From: Candidatus Gracilibacteria bacterium GN02-872
Lineage (GTDB): Bacteria > Patescibacteriota > Gracilibacteria > BD1-5 > UBA6164
NCBI GenBank assembly: GCA_003260325.1
Contig: MOLU01000006.1
Span: forward strand, 1-64,000
DNA length: 64,000 nt
Reading direction: 5' to 3'
Part shown: piece after piece, positions 8,965 to 41,103 of the stretch
Position numbering within the stretch: the stretch's first letter is position 1
How the letters are laid out: the number at the start of each line of letters is the position of its first letter
Program-made: the position numbers and the translations under genes
Notes under the pieces: model-generated
What the model was told of the DNA's origin: nothing
The model's input: only the letters and a program-made list of their open reading frames with translations
Databases searched by the model: none

Positions 8965-8977
8965 ATGAGGAAATCCT

Positions 8978-9112
8978 CTAATTTTTTTCTCCTTTTTCTT
9001 TAGAATATTTTGTAATGTCTTTCTCTATTTTTTTATTTACTATAGTTGTAAGTAAAAAATTTAGCAGAAGAATAATTAAAAATACAATCATTAAAAGTAC
9101 TATCCAACTCAT
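8978..9112 (-). CDS. Small membrane protein, 44 aa
   Basis: MSWIVLLMIVFLIILLLNFL is a single hydrophobic helix, followed by a short charged tail KKIEKDITKYSKEKGEKN. The SD AAAAGGAG lies five bases upstream of the ATG and matches the altered 16S 3' end for seven bases. Its ATG overlaps TGA of the preceding ORF (ATGA), a typical sign of translational coupling. It is followed by an intrinsic terminator. Function unknown; size and layout resemble toxin-like or holin-like small membrane proteins, but nothing proves that. Confidence 0.55.
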   Translation of the reverse strand: MSWIVLLMIVFLIILLLNFLLTTIVNKKIEKDITKYSKEKGEKN

Positions 9113-9261
9113 AATTTCTCCTTTTCCTCACATAGAGCCAATAATATGGCCAGGGTTCCCAGTACTATATTTGGAGCAATAAAGCCCCAAAAAATAGAAT
9201 TATTAAAATACAAACCAGCCCCCGTTCCAGAAAAAAGGAACAGGCTTGACATTAATTTCAT
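9100..9261 (-). CDS. Small hydrophobic protein, 50-53 aa
   Basis: MKLMSSLFLFSGTGAGLYFN then a second hydrophobic stretch ending ALCEEKEKL. The start is fixed by GGAGG nine bases upstream and by a consensus promoter. Glycines are GGA, GGG, GGT and GGC, and base composition is richer in G and C than neighbours. A TGA at 9109-9111 is either the original stop (50 aa, overlapping the next ATG as ATGA) or, in code 25, a Gly followed by Val-Gly and TAG (53 aa). First gene of a two-gene cassette. No family recognised. Confidence 0.55.
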
Positions 9262-20925: not shown

Positions 20926-21175
20926 TTGTTCAACTGCCTCCTTCAGTAAAGGCATCAGAAAACTCAGATAAGTCAAAAATTATTTTTGACCCATCAACTG
21001 ATATAATCTTTTTATCTATAGTAGAGATTTCACTCCCATTTTTAAATGAAATTGTAACTCTATCAACATCTCTAATCCTTTTTTTTGTTTCATTTTCTAT
21101 AGGTGTACTAGTACAACCTGAAATTGTAGAAAATGTCAATAGAAAAGTTAAGGTAGAGATTTTAATTTTGAACAT
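20921..21175 (-). CDS. Small lipoprotein, 81-84 aa
   Basis: MFKIKISTLTFLLTFSTISG with lipobox ISGC, so Cys21 would be lipidated. The mature part TSTPIENETKKRIRDVDRVT is a short polar domain, probably outside the membrane. A strong SD AAGGAGG and a perfect TTGACA-16-TATAAT promoter precede it and a terminator follows. Glycines are GGN. A TGA four codons before TAA is either an ancient stop (81 aa) or a Gly in code 25 (84 aa, ending GSGTT). It resembles small immunity or entry-exclusion lipoproteins only in size. No family named. Confidence 0.65.
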
Positions 21176-22396: not shown

Positions 22397-23920
<1,524 letters not shown>

Positions 23921-23998
23921 TTCTCAAATTTTAAATTTTATTTTTTTATATTTTAGAGAAAAAACAACATTTGTAAAGATTATTTTTTCACAAAAAAA

Positions 23999-24022
23999 GT
24001 AGGTGAGAAAAATCACCTACTT
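23999..24022 (-). terminator. Terminator of mini transcription unit 1
   Basis: AGTAGGTGA-TTTTTC-TCACCTACT followed by seven T on the minus strand. Confidence 0.85.
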
Positions 24023-24145
24023 TTCGCTTTAGCCATATACAACAGACAAGTTAAAAAAATATCTGTTTCATAAATGGATTTCATTCAACTTATTTCATAA
24101 CTTACTTCATAACTTTCTCCTTTTTCGCAGATTATCCTGCAAGTA
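24020..24145 (-). ncRNA. Mini transcription unit 1, short RNA with two ATG-AAR-TAA minigenes
   Basis: Promoter TTGACA (24170-24175), 16 bp, TAACAT (24148-24153). The leader has hairpin GCAG-GATAAT-CTGC, then SD AAAAAGGAG. ATG-AAG-TAA (24102-24110) and ATG-AAA-TAA (24090-24098) follow, each inside the repeated unit GTTATGAARTAAGTT. A second hairpin and a terminator follow. A Met-Lys dipeptide would be the only product. It ends about 80 bp upstream of metG. Either a regulatory RNA or a set of true minigenes. Confidence 0.5.
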
Positions 24146-24189
24146 GAATGTTAATTAAATATTCTATTTTGTCAAATTTTTTTTAAAAA

Positions 24190-24281
24190 AACCTAGCCAA
24201 TTAAGGCTAGGTTTGTGTTATAACCCTTATTCTTCGTTTAAAAAGTTATTTCATAATTTTCTCCTTTTTCAACTATAGAGA
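24190..24281 (-). ncRNA. Mini transcription unit 2, short RNA with one ATG-AAA-TAA minigene
   Basis: Promoter TTGACA (24309-24314), 16 bp, TATCAT (24287-24292). SD AAAAAGGAGA (24260-24269) matches the altered 16S end for seven bases and is followed by ATG-AAA-TAA (24246-24254). A terminator comes 35 bases later, so nothing longer can be translated. The start context GGAGAAAATTATGAAATAA is nearly that of unit 1. Confidence 0.5.
24192..24211 (-). terminator. Terminator of mini transcription unit 2
   Basis: CCTAGCC-TTAATT-GGCTAGG followed by seven T on the minus strand. Confidence 0.85.
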
Positions 24282-24322
24282 ATTAGATGATATGATTTTT
24301 TTATTTTTTGTCAAATTTTTAT

Positions 24323-24443
24323 AAAAAATTCCCTCTCATTTTTTGAGAGGGAAGCCTTGCAAGTTTTGTCTCAATCCAAAGCTAAATTCTGCAATTCTCC
24401 TAAAATGCAAAAAATCCTTTAAAAATCAGCTTTCTAGATTGAG
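24323..24443 (-). ncRNA. Mini transcription unit 3, structured short RNA
   Basis: Perfect promoter TTGACA (24472-24477), 16 bp, TATAAT (24450-24455). Ends of the RNA can pair: TCTCAATC with GATTGAGA (24437-24444 with 24369-24376), then AAAGCT with AGCTTT. This encloses a region with the SD-like AGGAGA but no usable start codon. Terminator TTCCCTCTCA/TGAGAGGGAA at 24329-24353. About 120 nt. Probably non-coding. Confidence 0.5.
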
Positions 24444-24589
24444 AATTAGATTATAAATAATTTTAAAATATTGTCAAGTTTTTTTTTAAAAAGTTTTTCT
24501 TAATTTGAAAAGAGCATCTAATAATATTGTCACAATACTTCATAATCATATGATAATTATGAAATTTTTGGTAATTTGAAAGGATCTTT

Positions 24590-25837
24590 TTAATTCTGTC
24601 AAACTCTCATTTTCTCAAGAGCTTCAATTCTTTTCAAAATAGTTGGATGAGAATAATAAAAAAATTCATAAGCTGGATGAGGAGCTAAATTTGTTAAGCT
24701 ATTTTTTGATAATTTAATCAAAGCATCTTTTAGATTTTCAGGATTTAATCTAACTCAAGAATATTTATCAGCTTCGTATTCATGTTTTCTTGATAAAATA
24801 TTTCAAAAAATTTCAAAAACCATAGAAAGTGGAGAAAAAACAATAGAAAAAGCTATTATTCAAAGAGCAAGAGATGAAGTTTGGCTTCAAAGAGCGATTC
24901 AGAATTCTAAGTGATTCAAAACTATTCACAAAATAAATAAAATAATTCAAGTCTGAACAATACTGATAAAAAGCATTTTTAAAATATGTTTCTCTTGATA
25001 ATGCCCTATTTCGTGAGCAAGAACAGCTACAAGTTCATCAGTTGTCAAATCATTTATCAAAGTATCAAACAAAACAATTCTTTTTTTCGGTCAAAATCCT
25101 GAAAAATACGCATTTGCCTTTGTTGACCTTTTACTTCAATCAATTACAAAAATATTGTCAAGCTTAAATCATTCTTTTTTAGCAAATTCTTCTATTTTAT
25201 CCCTAAGTTCTCATTCTTGAAGTGGAGTTTGTTTATTAAAAAGAGGAGAAATAAGGCTTTGGTAAAACATAATTGAAAAAATCATAAACAAAACAATGAT
25301 AATCCAAGCATAAAGCCAAAAATTATTTGGAAAAAATGAATAAACCCAAAGTAAAGCTGAAAATAATAATCATCAGATTACAAGACCAAGAAGAACAGAT
25401 TTTAAAATATCTAAAAAAAATATTTTTTTTGTCATTTTATTAAATCAAAATTTTTCTTCAATAACAAAATTTCAATAATAAGAAAAGGGAATATTTAGTA
25501 AAACTTGTCCCAAAAATAAAATTCAAACAAATAATAAATTTGCAAAAAATTCACTTCAAGTTTGGGAAAAAACAAAATCATAAATTTTTCAGAAAATTCA
25601 AAAACTCAAAAAAACTAAAATTAAAATAGTTGAGAAAACTGATTTTATAAGTCAGAATCTATGTTTTTCTTTTTCATATTCCATTGATTTTTTGTATTCA
25701 GTTTCATCATAAATATTTTTTAATTTTTCTGGAATTTCTCACCATTTTGTCGTATTTAAATATTCTAAAACAAAGCTAACTAAAAATTCAAAAATAATCA
25801 AAAAAATAAAAATTCACAAAATAATTTCCGGATTCAT
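24590..25837 (-). CDS. M48 family metalloprotease, STE24/CAAX prenyl protease 1 type
   Basis: 415 aa. The N-terminal half has several membrane helices as in Peptidase_M48_N. The zinc motif is [10 protein letters not shown] (HExxH), followed by [20 protein letters not shown], which holds the third ligand (ExxxD type). The order and length fit the STE24-like M48A group better than HtpX, which is about 290 aa. It is a membrane protease, perhaps for quality control. Many TGA-Gly codons, including the Gly of HEIGH-neighbouring segments. Confidence 0.9.
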
Positions 25838-29012: not shown

Positions 29013-31345
29013 TTACTTTTTGGAATTCAATAATAATCAAAAAGATAAGTTGCAACTTCTTTAAAAAGTTCTCAAGACGTAACAGCTCAATAAACACTTG
29101 TTCTAGGTCTTTCAAGCTTTACAATTATTACAAATTTTGGATCTTCAATTGGTCAATATCCTCAGTAAGAAGCATTTGTCCAACCTGGACCACTTTGATA
29201 TCTTCATTTATAAAGGATTTGCGCTGTTCAAGTTTTTCATGCAATAGAATATCCTTCTACAGCTCAAGTTTTTGCAAAACCGTTGACAGATCAGCTATGA
29301 AGCATTTTTGTAACTAATTGTGAAGTTGATTCTTTTATAACTCTTCTTTTTTCCTCTGTTTTATAATTTATTTCAGCTCAATTTGGATAAATTATTTTTT
29401 CTACGATTTTTGGCTTTACATAAACTCAACCGTTTGCTAAAATATTATAAGCTGTGGCCATTTGTAGAGGAGTTGCAGCAATTCAAAGTCAGTAGCTTTT
29501 TGTAAACAAATTTGCCATAGACCATTTTTCCCAAGAACTAAGGGGAGCAAATACTTCACCTTCTAAATCAACTCAAGTTAATTCTCAAAATCAAAAAGAT
29601 TCTAGATACTCTGCAACTAATGCTTTTCCCACTCTTTGAAATATTCTAATCATTCATACATTACAAGAGAAGTCAAGAGCGTGTTCAAAAGAATGATATC
29701 AAAGACATCTGTCAGATTCATTTTTTATTTCAAATTGATCAATCTTTACACTTCAAGTATCATTATATTTTGAATTTGCATCTATTTCTCATGTATCTAT
29801 TCAAATAGCCATAGTAATCGCTTTCATTATAGAACCTGGTTCGTAAAGTGAAGAAATTGCGTCATTTCTATAAACTCCAGCTCAATATCAATTCTTGTAT
29901 TTATATTTTACTAATGCAGAATTTCACAATTCTTCTGTTGTTGCTTCCCTTAAAAATATTTCTTTGTTATCATAAATAAATTTTTTTCATTCTGTTGAAT
30001 CTTCAACAAAAACAGGATATCAAAGTAAATCTACTGATGGATTTGGATATTTTGATCTTGTGACTTTTTCAAGTTCATAAACATCAGAATAATTATTTAT
30101 ATCATATGTTGGGTAGTTTGCCATAGCTAATATTTTTCAAGTTTTTGGCTCTGTTACAACAATTGTTCACTTATTTGCTTGGTATTTTTTAACTCATTTT
30201 TCAAGTATTTCTTCTATTTTTTGCTGAACATTTCTATCAATAGTTGTAATTATTTTTACTCATTCTCAAATCAAATCATCTTTTTCAAGCGAAATAGTGT
30301 CAATAATTCTTCATTTTACATCTTTTCTTGCAACTATTTTTCAGTTATTTCATTTTAAAATACCATTAAAATATCATTCTATTCAATATCTTCAAACTCA
30401 AGCATTATCTAAAAATCAAATTATTTGTGAACCAACACTATTTTCTGGATAATATCTGCTTGGATTTTCTGACAATATGAAAAAAGAACTAATTGAACTT
30501 TCTTTACTCAAAATTCACTTAGAAATGGCTTCGTTTTGCTCTCTTATAGTATCTTTTACTTTTTCCGAAGAATCAATAGAAAGCTTGTTTATTATTGGCA
30601 TATATCTCAACTCTCTCTTTTTTGTAATTTGTTTTAGTTCTTCTGTTGTCATTAACAAAATGTTTGAAACTTTTGCTAAGTTTTCCTCTGTTTGCGTGTA
30701 TTCCTCAGGATTTACATAAATAGAATTATCATTTATATAGAATCAACGAATATTTAATGCTTGAATTTTTGCTATTTGATCAGCAGTAAAGTCTGTTCAA
30801 AGCAAAACACTTGTCACTTTAGTTTGATTAATTCTAGTGCTTAGTTTCTCTGTAATCTGTTTTTTAACATACTCTGGTGTATTTTCAAAATCTTCCAAGT
30901 CTATAACTTTCAAAAATTTCAATAAATTATCTTTACATTTAGCTTTTATCTTTGAATTACAAATTTCATTATAAACTAGGTCAACAAGATATTCTCAAAG
31001 TTTTTCTTTATTTCCTGTGGCAGTTGGGTCAATTGCTAAATTATAGAGATTTATAGAAGTTGCAAAATAACTGGCTTTGTCATTTTTTCCATCTTTTTCA
31101 ATCGAAGAATAAATAATTCATCTATTTACAGGAACAGAAAAAGTTCAAATTTGCTGTTTATCAGCTAGTCAATTATAAAAATCATATTCTATAACTGTAT
31201 ATGAAAATAATTTCCAAATCAAAGCTGAAAAACAAAAAAGAAAAAAAAGCATAATTGTATGAATATTTTGCCATTTCCCTGAAATATTGTGAAAAGTTTT
31301 ATTTCTTCTTATTTTATAAATTAAATTTTCAAATTTTTCTTTCAT
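29006..31345 (-). CDS. Class B penicillin-binding protein (FtsI/PBP2 type transpeptidase)
   Basis: 779 aa. A short cytoplasmic part and a membrane anchor (IHTIMLFFLFCFSALIWKLF) are followed by a long PBP dimer domain with VGRYGIEGYFNGILKGNNGK. The transpeptidase domain has Ser505-x-x-Lys508 (YEPGSIMKAIT), SCN (SxN) and AGKTGTAQ with Lys704, where both glycines of KTG context are TGA. It crosslinks septal or lateral peptidoglycan. The N-terminal domain is longer than in E. coli FtsI. Monocistronic. The D,D- type complements the L,D-transpeptidase upstream. Confidence 0.93.
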
Positions 31346-31475
31346 TTTATTATTTCTAAAAATATTTTTATAATTATATTTATTTTTGAATTTTTTAAAA
31401 GTAAAAAATATGTTAATTTTTTAAAATCCTTTATTTATGCTAAAATTAACAAGAAAAAGAAAAAATAAATTTTTC

Positions 31476-31503
31476 TTGCAAAATAAAAAAAAAATGATAT
31501 ACT
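31476..31503 (+). promoter_or_regulatory. rpsO promoter
   Basis: TTGCAA (31476-31481) and TATACT (31498-31503), 16 bp apart. Confidence 0.75.
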
Positions 31504-31511
31504 AAATTGCA

Positions 31512-31578
31512 AGTCTAGGTTACTGGTGTATTTTTCTGGTTTCTGCTAGATGATTTATATTTTTAAAAATACATAATT
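31512..31578 (+). promoter_or_regulatory. Structured rpsO leader
   Basis: A roughly 70-nt leader is richer in G than its surroundings. TCTAG and CTAGA can pair around GTTACTGG...CTGGTTTCTG. S15 often represses its own mRNA through such leaders. Function inferred from position. Confidence 0.4.
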
Positions 31579-31848
31579 ATGAGTATTACAAAAGAAGAAA
31601 AAAAAGGAATTATAGAGAAGTTTGCTCCTAAAAAAGGTGATACAGGATCTCCTGAAGTACAAATTGCTATTTTATCAGCAAAAATTGAAAACTTAAAAGA
31701 ACATTTATTAGAGCACAAAAATGATAACCACAGCAGAAGATGAATTTTGCTTATGGTTGCTAAAAGAAGAAAATTATTAGCTTACTTGAAATCAAAATCT
31801 CCAGAGAAATATGCTGAAGTTATTGAAAAACTTGATATCAGAAAATAA
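31579..31848 (+). CDS. rpsO: 30S ribosomal protein S15 (uS15)
   Basis: 89 aa, normal length: [66 protein letters not shown]. The conserved DxHSRRGL loop has its Gly as TGA. It binds 16S at the central-domain three-way junction. Own promoter, leader and terminator. No SD before the ATG. Confidence 0.97.
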
Positions 31849-31849
31849 A

Positions 31850-31876
31850 AACTAGGATAAAATCCTAGTTTTTTAG
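31850..31876 (+). terminator. rpsO terminator
   Basis: AACTAGGATAAAATCCTAGTTTTTTAG, 9-bp stem with T tract. Confidence 0.85.
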
Positions 31877-31888
31877 TTTAAAAATACA

Positions 31889-32167
31889 TTACAAAAATAA
31901 CAACTCTTCCTCTTCCAAAGCTGGTTGTCAAAACCTCAAAACTTTTTTATTTAGCGAATCCGAGACAGGAAAAACGATTATACTATCAGCTCAAGTAAAC
32001 CTTGGAGCATAAATATTTTCAATTTCTGTTTTTAAAATTCACAAAATCCTTTCACTATTTTTTACTTCAAAAACACTGTATTGAAGCCTTCTTCAAAATT
32101 TTTTTAAAAGTTTTCAAAACTTTGTTCTAAGTTTATCGTTGTGAATATCATAAGCTACTATTAGCAT
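31889..32167 (-). CDS. cas2: CRISPR-associated endoribonuclease Cas2
   Basis: 92 aa, normal size: MLIVAYDIHNDKLRTKFGKL, then LLKKFGRRLQYSVFEVKNS. The ferredoxin-like fold with the early Asp (YDI) is characteristic. With Cas1 it forms the integrase that captures spacers. It starts 12 bp after cas1 and is last in the operon. A short rpsO terminator region follows, with no repeats. Confidence 0.93.
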
Positions 32168-32178
32168 ACTTAAAGTAA

Positions 32179-33153
32179 TTAGTTAGTATTTTTTATTATT
32201 TCAAAATTTGGAAATGTAGATTTTCATTTCATAAAATATTTGTAATATTCTTTCACAAAAGTAAAAATCTCAATTTTATAATGTAATATTTCTTTAAAAA
32301 ATATTTGAGTATATTTTTTAGAATTTTCCCATTTCAGAGCATATTGTCAATTTTTAAAGGAAAAATCTTTTTCATTTATTTGTCACAAATTGTACGATTT
32401 AAGCAATGCCTTATCAATAACGCATCTGAAAGGTTCCATCAAATCAAGAGCCAAAGATTTTCTTTGATACCAAGTTCTATGATAAACTCAATAATAATTA
32501 TCAAATCAATAAAGCCTAAGCATAGCTTCTATAAAGTGAAAAAGATAAGTATATCAAATATCTAAAAGTAAGTTCTTTATATCACACTTTGTTCTTGGAG
32601 CTCTTTTATACCATCAAATCTCTCAAAAATAATTTTGAAAAAATATTTTACTGATATTTCATTCGTATCAAAGCAAAACATCATAAGATTCGGCAGAATT
32701 GATTTTTGTGGAAATAGATTTTATTTTTGAAATATTTTCTTTTAAATCTGTACTTTTTTCTCTAAAATTTTTTAATAATTCTAATTGATTTTTTGTTTTT
32801 ATTTTTATAATATTTTTCGCTATTTCAAGCATTTGTTCTTCTGTTTTTTCATATTGTTTTTTTCTCAAAACAAAATTTCCTTCAGTTTCATTTCAAATAA
32901 CCAAATATGGAAGAAAATTTTTCTTCATCAAAACTAAAGTCACTCAAAATTCTTGAAATTTTCTGATGAGTACGCTTGTTATAGTCACTTCTCAAACTAA
33001 AAAAATAGCAAAAATTTTATAAAGAGAAATTTTATTTTTTATCAAATTTCCCTCTTTTATCACGAGATTATCATTTTCAAAATTGATGTTTTTTGTATCA
33101 AAACTTTCTATAATCAGAATTTGTTTTTCATCAAAATCAGGAAGGGAAAGCAT
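32179..33153 (-). CDS. cas1: CRISPR-associated endonuclease Cas1 (type V-A)
   Basis: 324 aa. The N-terminal beta domain (MLSLPDFDEKQILIIESFDT) is followed by the helical catalytic domain. The latter contains LGYTYLFHFIEAMLRLYGFD, GVYHRTWYQRKSLALDLMEP and FR, which give the catalytic Glu, His and Asp. This form is typical of Cas12a loci. Spacer integration with Cas2, and with Cas4 for PAM selection. Gly codons include TGA. Confidence 0.94.
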
Positions 33154-33155
33154 AA

Positions 33156-33767
33156 TTATTTATTATTGAATAATTGAAGTTGTTCTGTTTTTTCTCAGAT
33201 ATAATAATCACAAAGTTCATTGTAAATGCATTCTTTGCATTTGTTTGAGTTTTGTTTCCAGTGTTTCTGTAATAAATCAAATTTTCTATATTTTTCTAAG
33301 GTTTTTTCAAATTCTAAAATTTCTTTTTTACTTGGTTTATAAATTCTGTATTTTTTATTGTCTTTTATACTATAAATCCACAAGCTTTTTACTTCAAATC
33401 ACATTTCTTCTAAACAAAACATTTGTCACCAAAGCTGATATCTTTGTCATCTATAAATTTTTTCTTTTCAGTTTTCATCTTTAAAAATTTGAGTTTTTCT
33501 TTCTATCAATTCTCAAGTTTCTATATTAAAAATATCTATTTTTCATAGTATTTTGTAATGTTCACTATAAACATCCAAACTTTGCAAAATATTTTTCCTG
33601 GAAGAATATGTTTTTTCATCTATACTTTTATGTAGTAGTTTTCACTCTTTTTGAGCTTCTTTGTGAAAAAGAATATCATTATAATTATCATACAATTCGT
33701 GATAATATATAGATTTTTCACAATAAATGAAATCATTTAAAGTTGATAATTTTATGTAAGATTCCAT
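33156..33767 (-). CDS. cas4: CRISPR-associated exonuclease Cas4
   Basis: 203 aa. MESYIKLSTLNDFIYCEKSI carries the first iron-sulfur Cys, and CKECIYNELCDYY at the C-terminus the other three. The RecB nuclease core is seen in ILGKIDIF (Asp) and GELIERKTQ (Glu, Lys), followed by RYQLWGQMFCLEE. It trims prespacers and checks the PAM during adaptation. It ends three bases before the cas1 ATG, so coupled to it. Confidence 0.93.
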
Positions 33768-33786
33768 AAAATAAATAAAAAAAATA

Positions 33787-33811
33787 TACTAACTTTATGT
33801 TAGCATACTTT
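33787..33811 (-). terminator. Hairpin terminator between cas12a and cas4
   Basis: ATGCTAAC-ATAAA-GTTAGTAT followed by eight T on the minus strand. It could reduce transcription of the adaptation genes relative to cas12a. Confidence 0.6.
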
Positions 33812-33830
33812 TATTTTTGATGCAAATAAT

Positions 33831-36800
33831 TTAAGATTTTTGAATAAATTCATCCCATTGTTCATTGTTTACTAATAATTTTGGTTGATTTATTTTTGGA
33901 TTTTTTTGGATTTTTTCCAACATTATTTGTCATTTTCTAGCTATATTATAAGCTCAATTTGCATCTCAAGAAGTTGGTAATCTTAAATAATTTGTGTGTT
34001 CAAACTTTTCATTTTTTTCATCTTCAGACAATTGATCAAAATACGTTTTACTGTTGAAGAAAGGCTTTACAGGAGAAATTATCATATCATTTTCTTTATC
34101 ATCTTTATTTCTAATTTGTAAAATTACATCAATTATCCAAATCAGAGATTCAAAAAATTTTCCTTTTAAGTCAGTTTTTTCCTTTATCTGAGAAATAATT
34201 TCTTTGTTTTTATTTATTTCATTTTCTTCAAATAATTTATCTAATTCATCTGTTGTAAATATTTCATATATTTTCCATTTTCAAGTTTTTTTATCCACAG
34301 TTCATCTCCATCTTTCTCTTCCAGAATACAAAATCCATTCTTTTCACGATATTTTGTATTTGAAAAAATAAGCTTTTTCTTTTTCATCAAATCATATCTC
34401 AAAGAAAATATCTAAAATATTTTTTTTCATTTCTTCTAATTTTCACTTTGATAAGTAAATATTTTTTCTCCATCAAGTAATAGGATCTGTCACTGAAGTA
34501 TAAGCTGGATTTGCATAAAATAAAATTCACCATTGTCTTGATTTTTCTATATCAGAATAGTTTTTAGCCAAAGGACAAAGTTGATATGCTTTTATAATAC
34601 TTCAATTTTCAAAATCTTCAACTCATTTTACTGTTAAATAAGATAATTTTTTCACCAAACTAACTTCTAGGTTTTGATATATAGATTTCTCTATTTTTTG
34701 TCTTCACCTTTTAAATCATTTATTTAGCTTTTCCATAACAACTATTCAATTGTATTTTAAAACTAAATCTGATATTTTTTTAACAACTTGAGAGATATAT
34801 CATTCTTTCAAATTTTTTATATTTCAAATAGATTCCCAATCTTGCTTAGCTTTTAATCTACTATAAGCTCTTTGTGATAATAATCTTTCATAATCTACTC
34901 AATTAATTATATTTAAGCTTCATTGTTCAACTATTTCTCAAGTTAAAGCATTTATTACAGAATAGAAAGCTAAATGTTTTTCTCATCTATCAATTCAAAT
35001 TATATGGATATTTTTATAAAAATCTGGATTTCAAATTTTTGTATTTAGAAATGAATTAAATCATTCTTTCAAATTTCTTCATTTTATAGTTATTGGAAAA
35101 TATAAAAATATTTTATCTGAAGAATATCTTTTTAAGTGGAAAGGATTCTCAAAATCTTTTTCTATTTTAATTCATTTTTTTGTTTCAATAATTTTTTTAT
35201 CAAAAGAGCTAGACTTTCTGAAAAATATTTCTCACTGTCAAAGTAATTTTAGAAATTTATTATTTTTTTCATTCATCAAGTTCAAAAATAATTCTGTTTG
35301 TGTATTTTTATTTCAATTAGAATTAAAGTCTCTACTAGATATTTGATAAAGAAAAATTTTTTCTTCTAAATTTAATTTTTTTATTTTATCAAAATTTATT
35401 TCTTCCCAACTTAGTTTATAGCATAAATCAGCAGTTTCATTATAAAAATCTGCTATTGTTTCATAAGAATTGCTATCACTCCAATTTAAAAAATTATCTC
35501 TAAAACCTTCAAAGTCTTTATGTTTTCTAAATCATTCTTTAAAGTAATCTATAATTTTTGGTAAATATTGTTTGTAAGAATCCTTATTTTTATTTTTTGA
35601 AAAAAGTCATTTATCATAAATTTCTAAAATTGGTTTTGGATCTATCAGTTTTTCCCTTACCATTGGAGAAAATGTATCTTTTTTGGATCTTATAAACCAA
35701 CGAGGAGGATTTTTATTATCAACTTTTTGAGTTTCTAAAACCATTTTTTCGATTTTATTTTCGTCAGTTATTCATTTCCTCAAATCTTCAACATTTTCCT
35801 TTGATAATCCAGTTCAGTTAATTATTCAAATGTAAAAATTATCATTTTTCTTAAAAATCAAAGTTCAATAAGTACTAAAATCAGAATCCCATCAATTAAG
35901 CAAATATCAACAATTAAAGTTTAGTTTAATTTTTTCTTTACTAAAATCTTTTTTTGTTAAATAATTTCTAATTGCATCATAATACTTTGTTACCAAAAAA
36001 TCTTCAATTATTTCATCATAAAAATTATAAAATTCACTTTTAGCTTCTATAAAATCTCTATTTACTTTAAATATTCTGAGAAATTGAAAAATAAAGATTG
36101 ATTTATCAGCAAAAAGTTTCAATATTTTTTTATGCTTTTGATTTTTTGTATTAAAATCCTTAATTATTTCTTCTAATTCTTTCAAATAAGTTAAAAAAGA
36201 TTTTACCGTAAATGTTTCTTCATTTCCGCTTTCAGCAAAAATAATTTCTTCATCTTTTCAAGAATATAAATTTTCAACATCTTCTCTAAAAATTTTTTTA
36301 AAAAATTCCCAATTACTTGTTATTTTTCATCTTTTTTCCTCAAAATATTTTTTAAAGAAATAATTTCTTTTATTTTCTTCAATGTCTGAATAATCTACAA
36401 ATTCAACTTTTTCAAGCATTTCTTTAAAATCTTTTAGAGAAATATATTTCGGAATAGAAAAATTTTCTCCATCTTCCAAATCCTTTTTACTTTTTTTAGA
36501 AAATACTTTTAATTCTACTCATTTTTCAGCTAATATATACCAATTACTAAAATAACGATTTGATATAAAATTTAAATTATTTTTTGATATCCAGATTTTT
36601 TCTAATTCTTTTTCATCATTTTCAAAAATATTTTTTAGTTTTTCAATAATTATAGGAATATTTTTCTTAGATGAATTGGTTAATTTTTCTAAAATTGATT
36701 TAAAATCTTCTTCAGTTTCTACCATTTGAAAAGGAATAGATTTAGATTTTATAGATCATATTTGCTTATACAAAGGCTTAAGCTGAATTTTTTCTTTGTT

Positions 36801-37910
36801 ATTTTTTTGAGAATACTCGTTTAATCTTTGATTTATTCAATCTTCTATTCTTACTCATTTTTCATCTTTTTTTCATCAAATTATTTCATTATATTCATCA
36901 ATTCCTTCTTGAGATAGATATTTATTATAATTTTCTATTTTAAATATTTCATCTTCCTGATTTGATAAACTAATATCAATTTTTTCTAAATTATTTATAT
37001 TTCAAATAAAAGTGATAAAATTTTCGTTTACTATACGGTTTGCAACTGCAGTTGATTTATTTTCACTTGAATAATAATTTTCACGATTGTTGTTAAATGC
37101 TGAAAAATATGTCCAAAAGTCATTTAAATTATTTATTACATCTAAAACTTGTTTTTGAATTTCTTTCAAATCTTTTTTATAAATCTTTTCTAGAATTTCT
37201 TCTAAATATTTTTTTGCTTGATTTTTATCAAAATTTTTTTCATTTTCTCAAGTATTTATACTTGCCCACCAAGAAAAATCTTTTTCATTTTCAATCTTTT
37301 TTAAATAAAAAATAAATTTATTTTCCATCATTTCAATTGCTTTAGAATTTTCTTTTACTAGATTTTTAATTTCTGTTTCATTTTCAAAAATCTTTTTTAA
37401 AACTTTTAAAATTCAAGCTTCTGTTAATATTTTATATCAATTTTCTTTTAAAATAGTTTCTCATTTTTCATCTTTCCATAAATTTTTCCACTTTTCAGCT
37501 ATTTTTTCGTAATTATCTGTTATTTTTTTTCTAAATTCATCTAATTTTTTTTCATAATTATTTTTTTCTTCTTCTTTCCTTTTTTGTAATTTCAATAATT
37601 CTTTATCATCTTCAGTTTGTCTAATTTTCTTATTTATTCCTTCAATTTCTTTCTTATAGGAATTTACTGATTTAGCTAATTCTGACCAATTTTCATTAAA
37701 AAGAAATAAACTTTCTCTTATAAATTTATCGTGCAATTGATCAAAAACAGGTTTTATTATATCATAATCTTTATCTCTAAGTTCATCTTTTTCTTCAATT
37801 CAAAGTTTTTCAGTTATTGCTTTAGTTTGTTCTATTGGTTTCAACTCAAACCTCAAAGTTTTTATAATTTCATAAAGATTTGTAAAATCCTTAAAATTAT
37901 TGTTTTCCAT
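33831..37910 (-). CDS. cas12a: CRISPR-associated endonuclease Cas12a (Cpf1), type V-A effector
   Basis: 1359 aa, slightly longer than the usual 1200-1300. The N-terminus FKDFTNLYEIIKTLRFELKP is the typical WED-I start. RuvC-I is IIGIDRGEKHLAF with Asp974. RuvC-II is GIVVMEKLNKGFKRG with Glu1060. RuvC-III is TSGDANGAYNIA with Asp1316. Between RuvC-II and RuvC-III an Arg in LQIRNKDD corresponds in position to the Nuc-domain arginine. Cas12a cuts double-stranded DNA guided by a crRNA it processes itself. Dozens of TGA codons, including both glycines of IDRG context, mean standard-code gene calling sees only fragments. First gene of the cas operon. Confidence 0.96.
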
Positions 37911-37942
37911 AATTCAAAAAGTTAAAAAATTAAAAAACAAAA

Positions 37943-40159: not shown

Positions 40160-40293
40160 AATTATTAAGTTATCAAATATTTTTTGTATATAATATCAAA
40201 TATCATCAAATTTACAAGGATTTTTTAAAAAAGATTTGTTTTTTTTCAAAAATGATTATTATTTTGCTAATCTTATTTTTTTATAAAAGAAAT

Positions 40294-41103
40294 ATGAAAA
40301 ATTCTAAAAAATGATTTACTTTGGTTGAATTGCTTGTGGTTATAACTATTTTGGCAATTATTTCAGTTGTAGCTTACCAAAGTTTTTCTTGAGCAACAGA
40401 TAAAGCAAATGCAAGTAGAAAATTGCAAGATGTAACAACTATAGAAAGCTGATTACAACAGTATTTTGCAAATAATAATTTTTACCCTCCAGTTGATTTA
40501 ATTGATACTTCAAAAAACAAATATTGATATGACAAGGCTCAAGTTGCAACTCCAAGTAATACTTTAACAGTTACAAAAACTTGAGTAGAAATAAAAGAAG
40601 TAAATGCTGCAACGGGTTGAGGAAAAATAATGTGAAAATGAGATTATTCATCAAAACAAATTTGAGCAAAATGAACTATTTCTCAAGAAACTCTAGGAAA
40701 ACAATATTTAACAAAAGATTTGTATGATCCAGAGCTTTGAGATATGAAAGTTGGTTCAGACAAAATGATTGATAAAGGAATTGGAAGATATGTTTACGCA
40801 GTTTATAAAAAACCAACTGGAAATGATTGGGGAAATGATAACAATACTTGAACTTATTACAATATAGCTTACACTGTTAAAAAAGATTGAACAGAAGATT
40901 ATGAAACAAAAATAGTTTGACCTTATGATAACAAAAGCTGTATAGGAAAGGAAAATGATTGTCCAGAAACATTGATTTGAAGTGGAGAAAATATTCTGAA
41001 GAATAATCAAATTTCGTGAAAGACTTCAGATGGAAAGGATTTACCAAATTTTGATTCAAAACAGCCAAATCAATGAATTCCTTATCCTCTTGGAAATTTT
41101 TAG
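40294..41103 (+). CDS. Type IV pilin-like (pseudopilin) protein
   Basis: 269 aa. MKNSKKG-FTLVELLVVIT is a classic prepilin: cleavage after Gly7 (coded TGA), Phe+1 and Glu+5, then a hydrophobic helix. The globular part has two Cys (SCIGKENDCPE) that may form a disulfide and ends in PYPLGNF. It would be assembled at the inner membrane into a pilus or secretion filament. No assembly genes lie beside it. A terminator follows. Confidence 0.88.

What the first reader, a model, noticed from the sequence alone, without database searches (positions are those of the whole stretch)
23999..24477. Tandem array of three mini transcription units with ATG-AAR-TAA minigenes
Within 480 bp lie three promoter-terminator units. 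Two carry a strong SD (AAAAAGGAGA) followed by a two-codon ORF ATG-AAG-TAA or ATG-AAA-TAA, in unit 1 twice within GTTATGAARTAAGTT. The third is a structured RNA exposing AGGAGA. Such minigenes in E. coli sequester tRNA and ribosomes by peptidyl-tRNA drop-off. Here they may titrate initiation, act as SD decoys for the altered anti-SD, or tune metG just downstream. I know of no described system like this.
Basis: partly seen in the sequence, partly recalled or inferred. Interest (0 to 1): 0.75.

Follow-up and report, generated by a model that had tools for sequence, protein, structure and literature searches.

The report
Tandem dead-end two-codon RNA units
A small-genome bacterium carries, in one gap between genes, three back-to-back short RNA units, two of which should pull in ribosomes with unusually strong signals to a reading frame that stops after two codons; it may be a ribosome trap, but nothing shows yet that it works.

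Summary
On the minus strand between an M48 peptidase gene and metG, three short units follow each other (24477-23995). Each has an exact TTGACA -35 with a 16-nt spacer and ends in a hairpin. Units 1 and 2 carry AAAAAGGAGA and a two-codon frame, ATG-AAR-TAA (twice in unit 1); 29 of 34 bases around this module are shared between them, which 0 of 500 shuffles reach.

It stands out because the genome hardly uses Shine-Dalgarno sites: 0 of 41 ORFs of at least 120 codons have a strong one, and the first unit 1 minigene pairs with the 16S tail better than each of 35 genes scored. Of 4 intergenic AAGGAGR-ATG sites in the window, 2 are these minigenes.

No second array was seen in 353 class genomes (hits examined in part). 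A relative with the same two neighbours has an 88-base gap without it. DNA of the closest relatives (MetG 80-95%) was out of reach, so conservation is untested. I favour RNAs that park ribosomes on a dead-end ORF (0.35) over decaying duplications, ribosome-shielded sRNAs or a metG leader. Two-codon minigenes are known; a free-standing tandem array is a new variant.

The parts
24450..24477 (-). Unit 3 promoter-like site, TTGACA-16-TATAAT
   Evidence: 12 of 12; one of two such sites in the window
24323..24443 (-). Unit 3 predicted RNA: imperfect hairpin holding AGGAGA (24401-24396), no minigene, then terminator 24353-24329
   Evidence: fold z -4.0; terminator; start inferred from the -10 box
24287..24314 (-). 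Unit 2 promoter-like site, TTGACA-16-TATCAT
   Evidence: 11 of 12
24260..24269 (-). Unit 2 Shine-Dalgarno AAAAAGGAGA
   Evidence: duplex with the 16S tail -9.9 kcal/mol
24246..24254 (-). Unit 2 minigene ATG-AAA-TAA
24220..24249 (-). Unit 2 hairpin that begins at the minigene stop codon
   Evidence: minimum-energy fold
24189..24214 (-). Unit 2 terminator hairpin followed by a T run
   Evidence: not listed by the scan
24148..24175 (-). Unit 1 promoter-like site, TTGACA-16-TAACAT
   Evidence: 10 of 12
24116..24125 (-). Unit 1 Shine-Dalgarno AAAAAGGAGA
   Evidence: duplex with the 16S tail -10.3 kcal/mol, better than each of 35 genes
24102..24110 (-). Unit 1 minigene 1, ATG-AAG-TAA
24090..24098 (-). 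Unit 1 minigene 2, ATG-AAA-TAA, in the same frame
23995..24024 (-). Unit 1 terminator hairpin (12-nt perfect arms) followed by a T run
   Evidence: not listed by the scan
23950..23977 (-). Promoter-like site of metG (TTTACA-16-TAAAAT), outside the array
   Evidence: 10 of 12
22397..23920 (-). metG, methionine--tRNA ligase, downstream neighbour
   Evidence: Pfam PF09334; relatives named so

Best explanation
Three tandem, self-contained units make short RNAs from strong promoters. In two of them a very strong Shine-Dalgarno loads ribosomes on a frame that ends after fMet-Lys at UAA. The ribosome makes fMet-Lys-tRNA, then terminates slowly, drops the peptidyl-tRNA or starts again on the same SD, so ribosomes and Lys-tRNA are held on a message that codes for nothing. 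The net effect would be a ribosome-parking RNA that damps translation in a cell whose other genes hardly use SDs. Shown from sequence: promoter-like sites, hairpins, SDs, minigenes, SD poverty of the genome. Inferred: transcription, ribosome loading, drop-off, any effect on the cell.
For: Exact -35 sites with the 16-nt spacer also seen before the 16S gene. SD-16S duplex -9.9 and -10.3 kcal/mol against a median of -1.7 and a best of -9.3 for 35 genes. 0 of 41 ORFs with a strong SD; 2 of the 4 intergenic SD-ATG sites are these minigenes, and 252,842 bases from relatives hold 1 such site, before 12 codons. Units 1 and 2 share 29 of 34 bases over the module; at most 26 in 500 shuffles. The three copies differ only AAA/AAG, both Lys. 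Two codons, strong SD and UAA are the traits reported to make E. coli minigenes most toxic (PMC8708949, Discussion part 1), and fMet-Lys dissociates fast (PMC10192219, passages).
Against: No expression data. No second array seen in 353 class genomes and none at metG in 22 relatives' loci. Unit 3 has no minigene and its AGGAGA is mostly paired. Exposure of the SDs in units 1 and 2 falls to 0.36 or 0.19 if the RNA starts 2-3 nt elsewhere. The leader minigene tested in PMC8708949 was not toxic and acted only in cis. The likeness of units 1 and 2 may be recent duplication rather than selection.
Confidence: 0.35

Rival explanations
1. Neutral leftovers: a promoter-SD segment was duplicated and lost its genes, and the two-codon frames are truncated starts that happen to remain.
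For: Lineage-restricted as far as seen; an orthologous gap in L038 is 88 bases against 669 here; units 2 and 3 share 72% over 54 bases of promoter region.
Against: Three intact promoter-like sites, each with its own unrelated terminator stem, and an SD-minigene block kept at 29 of 34 while flanks differ.
Confidence: 0.27
2. The units are ordinary trans-acting small RNAs; the SD-minigene only seats a ribosome that shields the RNA from RNases, as proposed for leader minigenes.
For: Ribosome loading at a mini-ORF is proposed to protect mRNA in axe-txe and LEE4 (PMC8708949, Introduction and Discussion part 1); the RNAs are structured.
Against: Outside promoter and SD-minigene I found no likeness between units 1 and 2 that could be a shared target-pairing part; no Rfam family. 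Targets were not searched.
Confidence: 0.22
3. Unit 1 is a leader of metG: initiation at its ATG codons senses charged initiator tRNA and decides read-through into metG.
For: Same strand, metG begins 75 bases after the terminator hairpin; one 9-pair alternative partner for the terminator arm exists.
Against: 5 of those 9 pairs are G-U, and units 2 and 3 have only 5-pair candidates; a promoter-like site lies between terminator and metG; relatives' metG lacks the leader.
Confidence: 0.08
4. Unit 1 encodes a small protein: ribosomes leaving the second minigene restart at 24084 on a 34-codon frame.
For: The frame is open under code 25 and starts 5 nt after the second TAA.
Against: It runs through the terminator hairpin, no SD lies directly before it, and unit 2 shows no counterpart (my reading).
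Confidence: 0.04

Closest known systems
Phage lambda bar minigenes and synthetic two-codon minigenes of E. coli
   Same: Strong SD, two sense codons, UAA; peptidyl-tRNA accumulation and tRNA starvation are described for them (titles in the reference list of PMC8012679; Discussion of PMC8708949).
   Different: Here the minigenes sit in tandem autonomous units in a chromosome gap, the codon is Lys, and no effect has been measured. The codon of the bar minigenes is from recall only.
Leader minigenes: axe-txe mg2, EHEC LEE1 (two codons) and LEE4 (six codons), B. subtilis ycbK dipeptide ORFs
   Same: Very short ORF behind an SD in a bacterial transcript (PMC8708949, Introduction).
   Different: Those lie upstream of a real gene in the same transcript and act in cis; here a terminator follows and no gene of known kind is in the unit.
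Tandem small-RNA arrays (sibling sRNAs; recalled)
   Same: Neighbouring promoter-terminator units of about 150 bp with partly shared sequence.
   Different: The shared part here is a ribosome-binding module; no Rfam match.
Leader-peptide attenuators (such as trpL)
   Same: Short ORF followed by hairpins and a terminator on the strand of an aminoacyl-tRNA synthetase gene.
   Different: No convincing antiterminator and a separate promoter-like site for metG.

Membership tests
Two-codon minigene (lambda bar type) | ORF of two sense codons with its own SD at normal spacing | tested here: met
   SD AAAAAGGAGA, then ATG-AAR-TAA; duplex -9.9 and -10.3 kcal/mol
Two-codon minigene (lambda bar type) | UAA stop codon | tested here: met
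   3 of 3 copies end in TAA
Two-codon minigene (lambda bar type) | Translation causes peptidyl-tRNA build-up and growth inhibition | not testable with these tools
   needs expression in a laboratory strain
Leader minigene acting in cis (axe-txe, LEE1) | A main ORF follows in the same transcript | tested here: not met
   terminator hairpins follow in both units; only a 34-codon frame that overlaps the terminator in unit 1
Transcription attenuator of metG | Terminator and antiterminator that exclude each other | tested here: inconclusive
   terminator clear; best alternative partner 9 pairs, 5 of them G-U
Known RNA family (Rfam 15) | Score at or above a family's gathering threshold | tested here: not met
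   none in the array; best sub-threshold match 24.8 bits against 54
Conserved regulatory array | Present with changed flanks in close relatives | not testable with these tools

The most novel reading that the evidence does not exclude
A natural, free-standing ribosome and Lys-tRNA sink: a tandem array of messages whose only job is to seat ribosomes on fMet-Lys-stop frames. The retained anti-SD of an almost SD-free bacterium would then serve as a control point, letting SD-bearing decoys compete with the largely SD-less mRNAs.
Probability: 0.25. Interest if true: 0.78.

Novelty: new variant of a known kind. Interest (0 to 1): 0.48.

Why it matters
The two-codon minigenes that I met in print are phage or laboratory constructs, or act on the next gene of their own transcript. 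An autonomous array would be a cellular use of dead-end translation as a regulator. It would also offer a reason why a lineage with almost no SD-led genes keeps an intact anti-SD core. The array is short enough to be tested in a laboratory strain.

Tried and rejected
Rejected: unit 3 as an exposed SD decoy; known RNA families. Mobile DNA as the source is not supported: no match at E 1e-5 in 50,697 phage or 72,556 plasmid records, 0 exact pattern matches in viral contigs, no MetG relative among viral-contig candidates.

Homologous arrays: the exact pattern gave 0 of 8 genomes reached through loci and 6 hits in 5 of 48 family genomes. All 6 were read: 5 lie in a sense open frame of 174 to 978 codons (code 25), and 1 (L042) lies in no frame longer than 62 codons but is single. 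The two-mismatch pattern gave 59 places in 49 of 353 class genomes, against about 27 for the reversed control (my counts of the rows). None is exact, two have one mismatch, and no two lie near each other. I examined 12 of the 30 loci given; all 12 overlap an open frame of at least 156 codons on one strand, one of them (L086) being a plain gene start with an SD. The other 18 loci and the places without a locus were not read. With any second codon: 10 hits in 10 of 48 genomes, 10 for the reversed control, contexts not read, so SD-minigenes are not enriched there. The blastn search with the whole array matched 335 of 353 genomes at E up to 1, which I take as AT-rich background; I looked at 6 of the 10 loci. 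The best (L107, E 1e-8) lies in a 549-codon open frame without the SD; L109 shares a promoter stretch.

metG loci: of 40 loci I used 22 (L001-L019, L037-L039; two are from one genome) and dropped 18 of other phyla or with weak matches. Some contigs end soon before metG (L009 at 368 bases, L013 at 688). A looser scan found very short ORFs behind GGAG here and there, including GTG-AAG-TAA in L018 and L038 and TTG-AAA-TAA in L019, none within 4 kb upstream of metG.

Led nowhere: finding close DNA. Dropped before counts: 6 of the 41 genes were left out of the 35 (five with TTG or GTG starts and 40252-41103); one search is a separate count with ATG ORFs of at least 120 codons only, which leaves out the SD-led 81-codon gene at 20930 and the 44-codon ORF at 9112 (-9.9 kcal/mol).

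Full report
What was checked. The window is AT-rich (GC 26.7%). Its genes read through under code 25 (TGA = Gly): MetG has 21 TGA codons read as Gly, and its relatives in named records are mostly Candidatus Gracilibacteria. The array lies on the minus strand in a 669-base gap between an M48 peptidase gene (24590-25837) and metG (22397-23920).

Anatomy. Unit 3 comes first in the direction of transcription: an exact TTGACA-16-TATAAT (24477-24450), then a predicted RNA of about 121 nt that folds into an imperfect hairpin plus terminator (z -4.0). Unit 2: TTGACA-16-TATCAT, SD AAAAAGGAGA, ATG-AAA-TAA, a hairpin that begins at the stop codon (24249-24220), then a terminator. Unit 1: TTGACA-16-TAACAT, the same SD, ATG-AAG-TAA and, 12 nt on in the same frame, ATG-AAA-TAA, then a terminator with 12-nt perfect arms. 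After it comes a promoter-like site that ends 30 nt before metG (23977-23950). RNA starts are inferred from the -10 boxes; no RNA data were available.

Is it more than chance? The window has two 12-of-12 promoter-like sites; unit 3 owns one of them, and the other lies before the SD-led 81-codon gene. Thirteen sites have an exact -35, a 16 or 17 nt spacer and at least 4 of 6 at the -10; three are in this array and one lies before the 16S gene. The SD-minigene pattern is present twice, against once in 60 shuffles of the window, and has 6 hits in 48 relatives' genomes against 3 for the reversed control. Units 1 and 2 share 29 of 34 bases over the SD-minigene block; 500 shuffle pairs reach at most 26, and 491 real stretches of the window compared with unit 1 reach at most 24. 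The repeat finder gives the same block at 85%. Among the three ATG-AAR-TAA copies the only difference is AAA or AAG, both Lys.

Setting. This genome hardly uses Shine-Dalgarno sites. The median duplex energy with the 16S tail upstream of 35 genes is -1.7 kcal/mol; the best is -9.3 (the small gene at 20930-21175). The minigenes score -9.9 (unit 2), -10.3 and -7.9 (unit 1, first and second); a 44-codon ORF at 9112 also scores -9.9. In a separate count, 0 of 41 window ORFs and 4 of 195 ORFs in 22 relatives' loci (252,842 bases) reach -8. Intergenic AAGGAGR-N3-8-ATG occurs four times in the window: these two minigenes and two small ORFs of 84 and 44 codons. In the relatives' loci it occurs once, before 12 codons. 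The 16S gene ends in CTATCTCCTTA, so the core that such SDs need is intact.

Relatives. No GGAG-led ATG-AAR-TAA lies upstream of metG in the 22 loci. L038 has the orthologous peptidase gene (58% identity over 411 residues) directly before metG, with 88 bases between them and no array. Searches over 353 class genomes showed no second example among the places I read, with the limits given under Tried and rejected. The closest MetG in a reachable genome is 71% identical. So the array may be young or kept only in a narrow lineage; this is the largest gap in the case.

How it may work. By PMC8708949 (abstract, Introduction and Discussion part 1 read), two-codon minigenes are the most toxic in E. 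[quoted passage not shown] the same paper found its own leader minigene not toxic and acting in cis. PMC10192219 (passages) reports that fMet-Lys dissociates fast and that Lys- and Phe-tRNAs are depleted when Pth fails. Units 1 and 2 combine these traits and have no following gene before a terminator, so a cis effect on a neighbour needs read-through. What remains is an effect in trans (sink), on the RNA itself (shield), or none (remnant). I lean to the sink because the part that units 1 and 2 share is the ribosome-loading module, but recent duplication explains the likeness as well, unit 3 does not fit a minigene mechanism, and SD exposure in units 1 and 2 depends on a start site that I could only infer. 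No step beyond the sequence is shown.

Novelty. Searches of the held open-licence library listed no free-standing minigene array, and the listings for Gracilibacteria with Shine-Dalgarno or with small RNA or transcriptome show no study of their small RNAs by title. Subscription papers are mostly not held. Of four papers opened I saw passages (PMC6851277, PMC8012679, PMC10192219) or named sections (PMC8708949). I therefore call it a new variant of a known kind.

Noticed in passing
window 32179-37940, minus strand: Cas1, Cas4 and Cas12a (Cpf1) genes by Pfam, with no direct-repeat family of 20 nt or more in 31300-32250, so no CRISPR array was seen on that side; the other side was not searched.
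   Followed up: partly
window 8970-9261, minus strand: Two small SD-led ORFs in a row (ATG at 9261 and 9112), hydrophobic, followed by a terminator-like hairpin; with the gene at 20930 they are the few clear SD users that I saw in the window.
   Followed up: partly
window 20930-21175, minus strand: 81-codon gene behind the other 12-of-12 promoter and an AAGGAGG SD; the start looks like a lipoprotein signal, no Pfam match.
   Followed up: no
L089, L090, L091: In three class genomes a near-identical AGGAGAAGATTATGAAATAA lies at the start of a long open frame on the opposite strand; perhaps a conserved promoter or leader, not a minigene unit.
   Followed up: no
window, most gene starts: Many genes show A+T-rich stretches with TATAAT-like boxes 8-20 nt before the ATG and no SD, which suggests leaderless or very short-leader mRNAs (my reading).
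   Followed up: no
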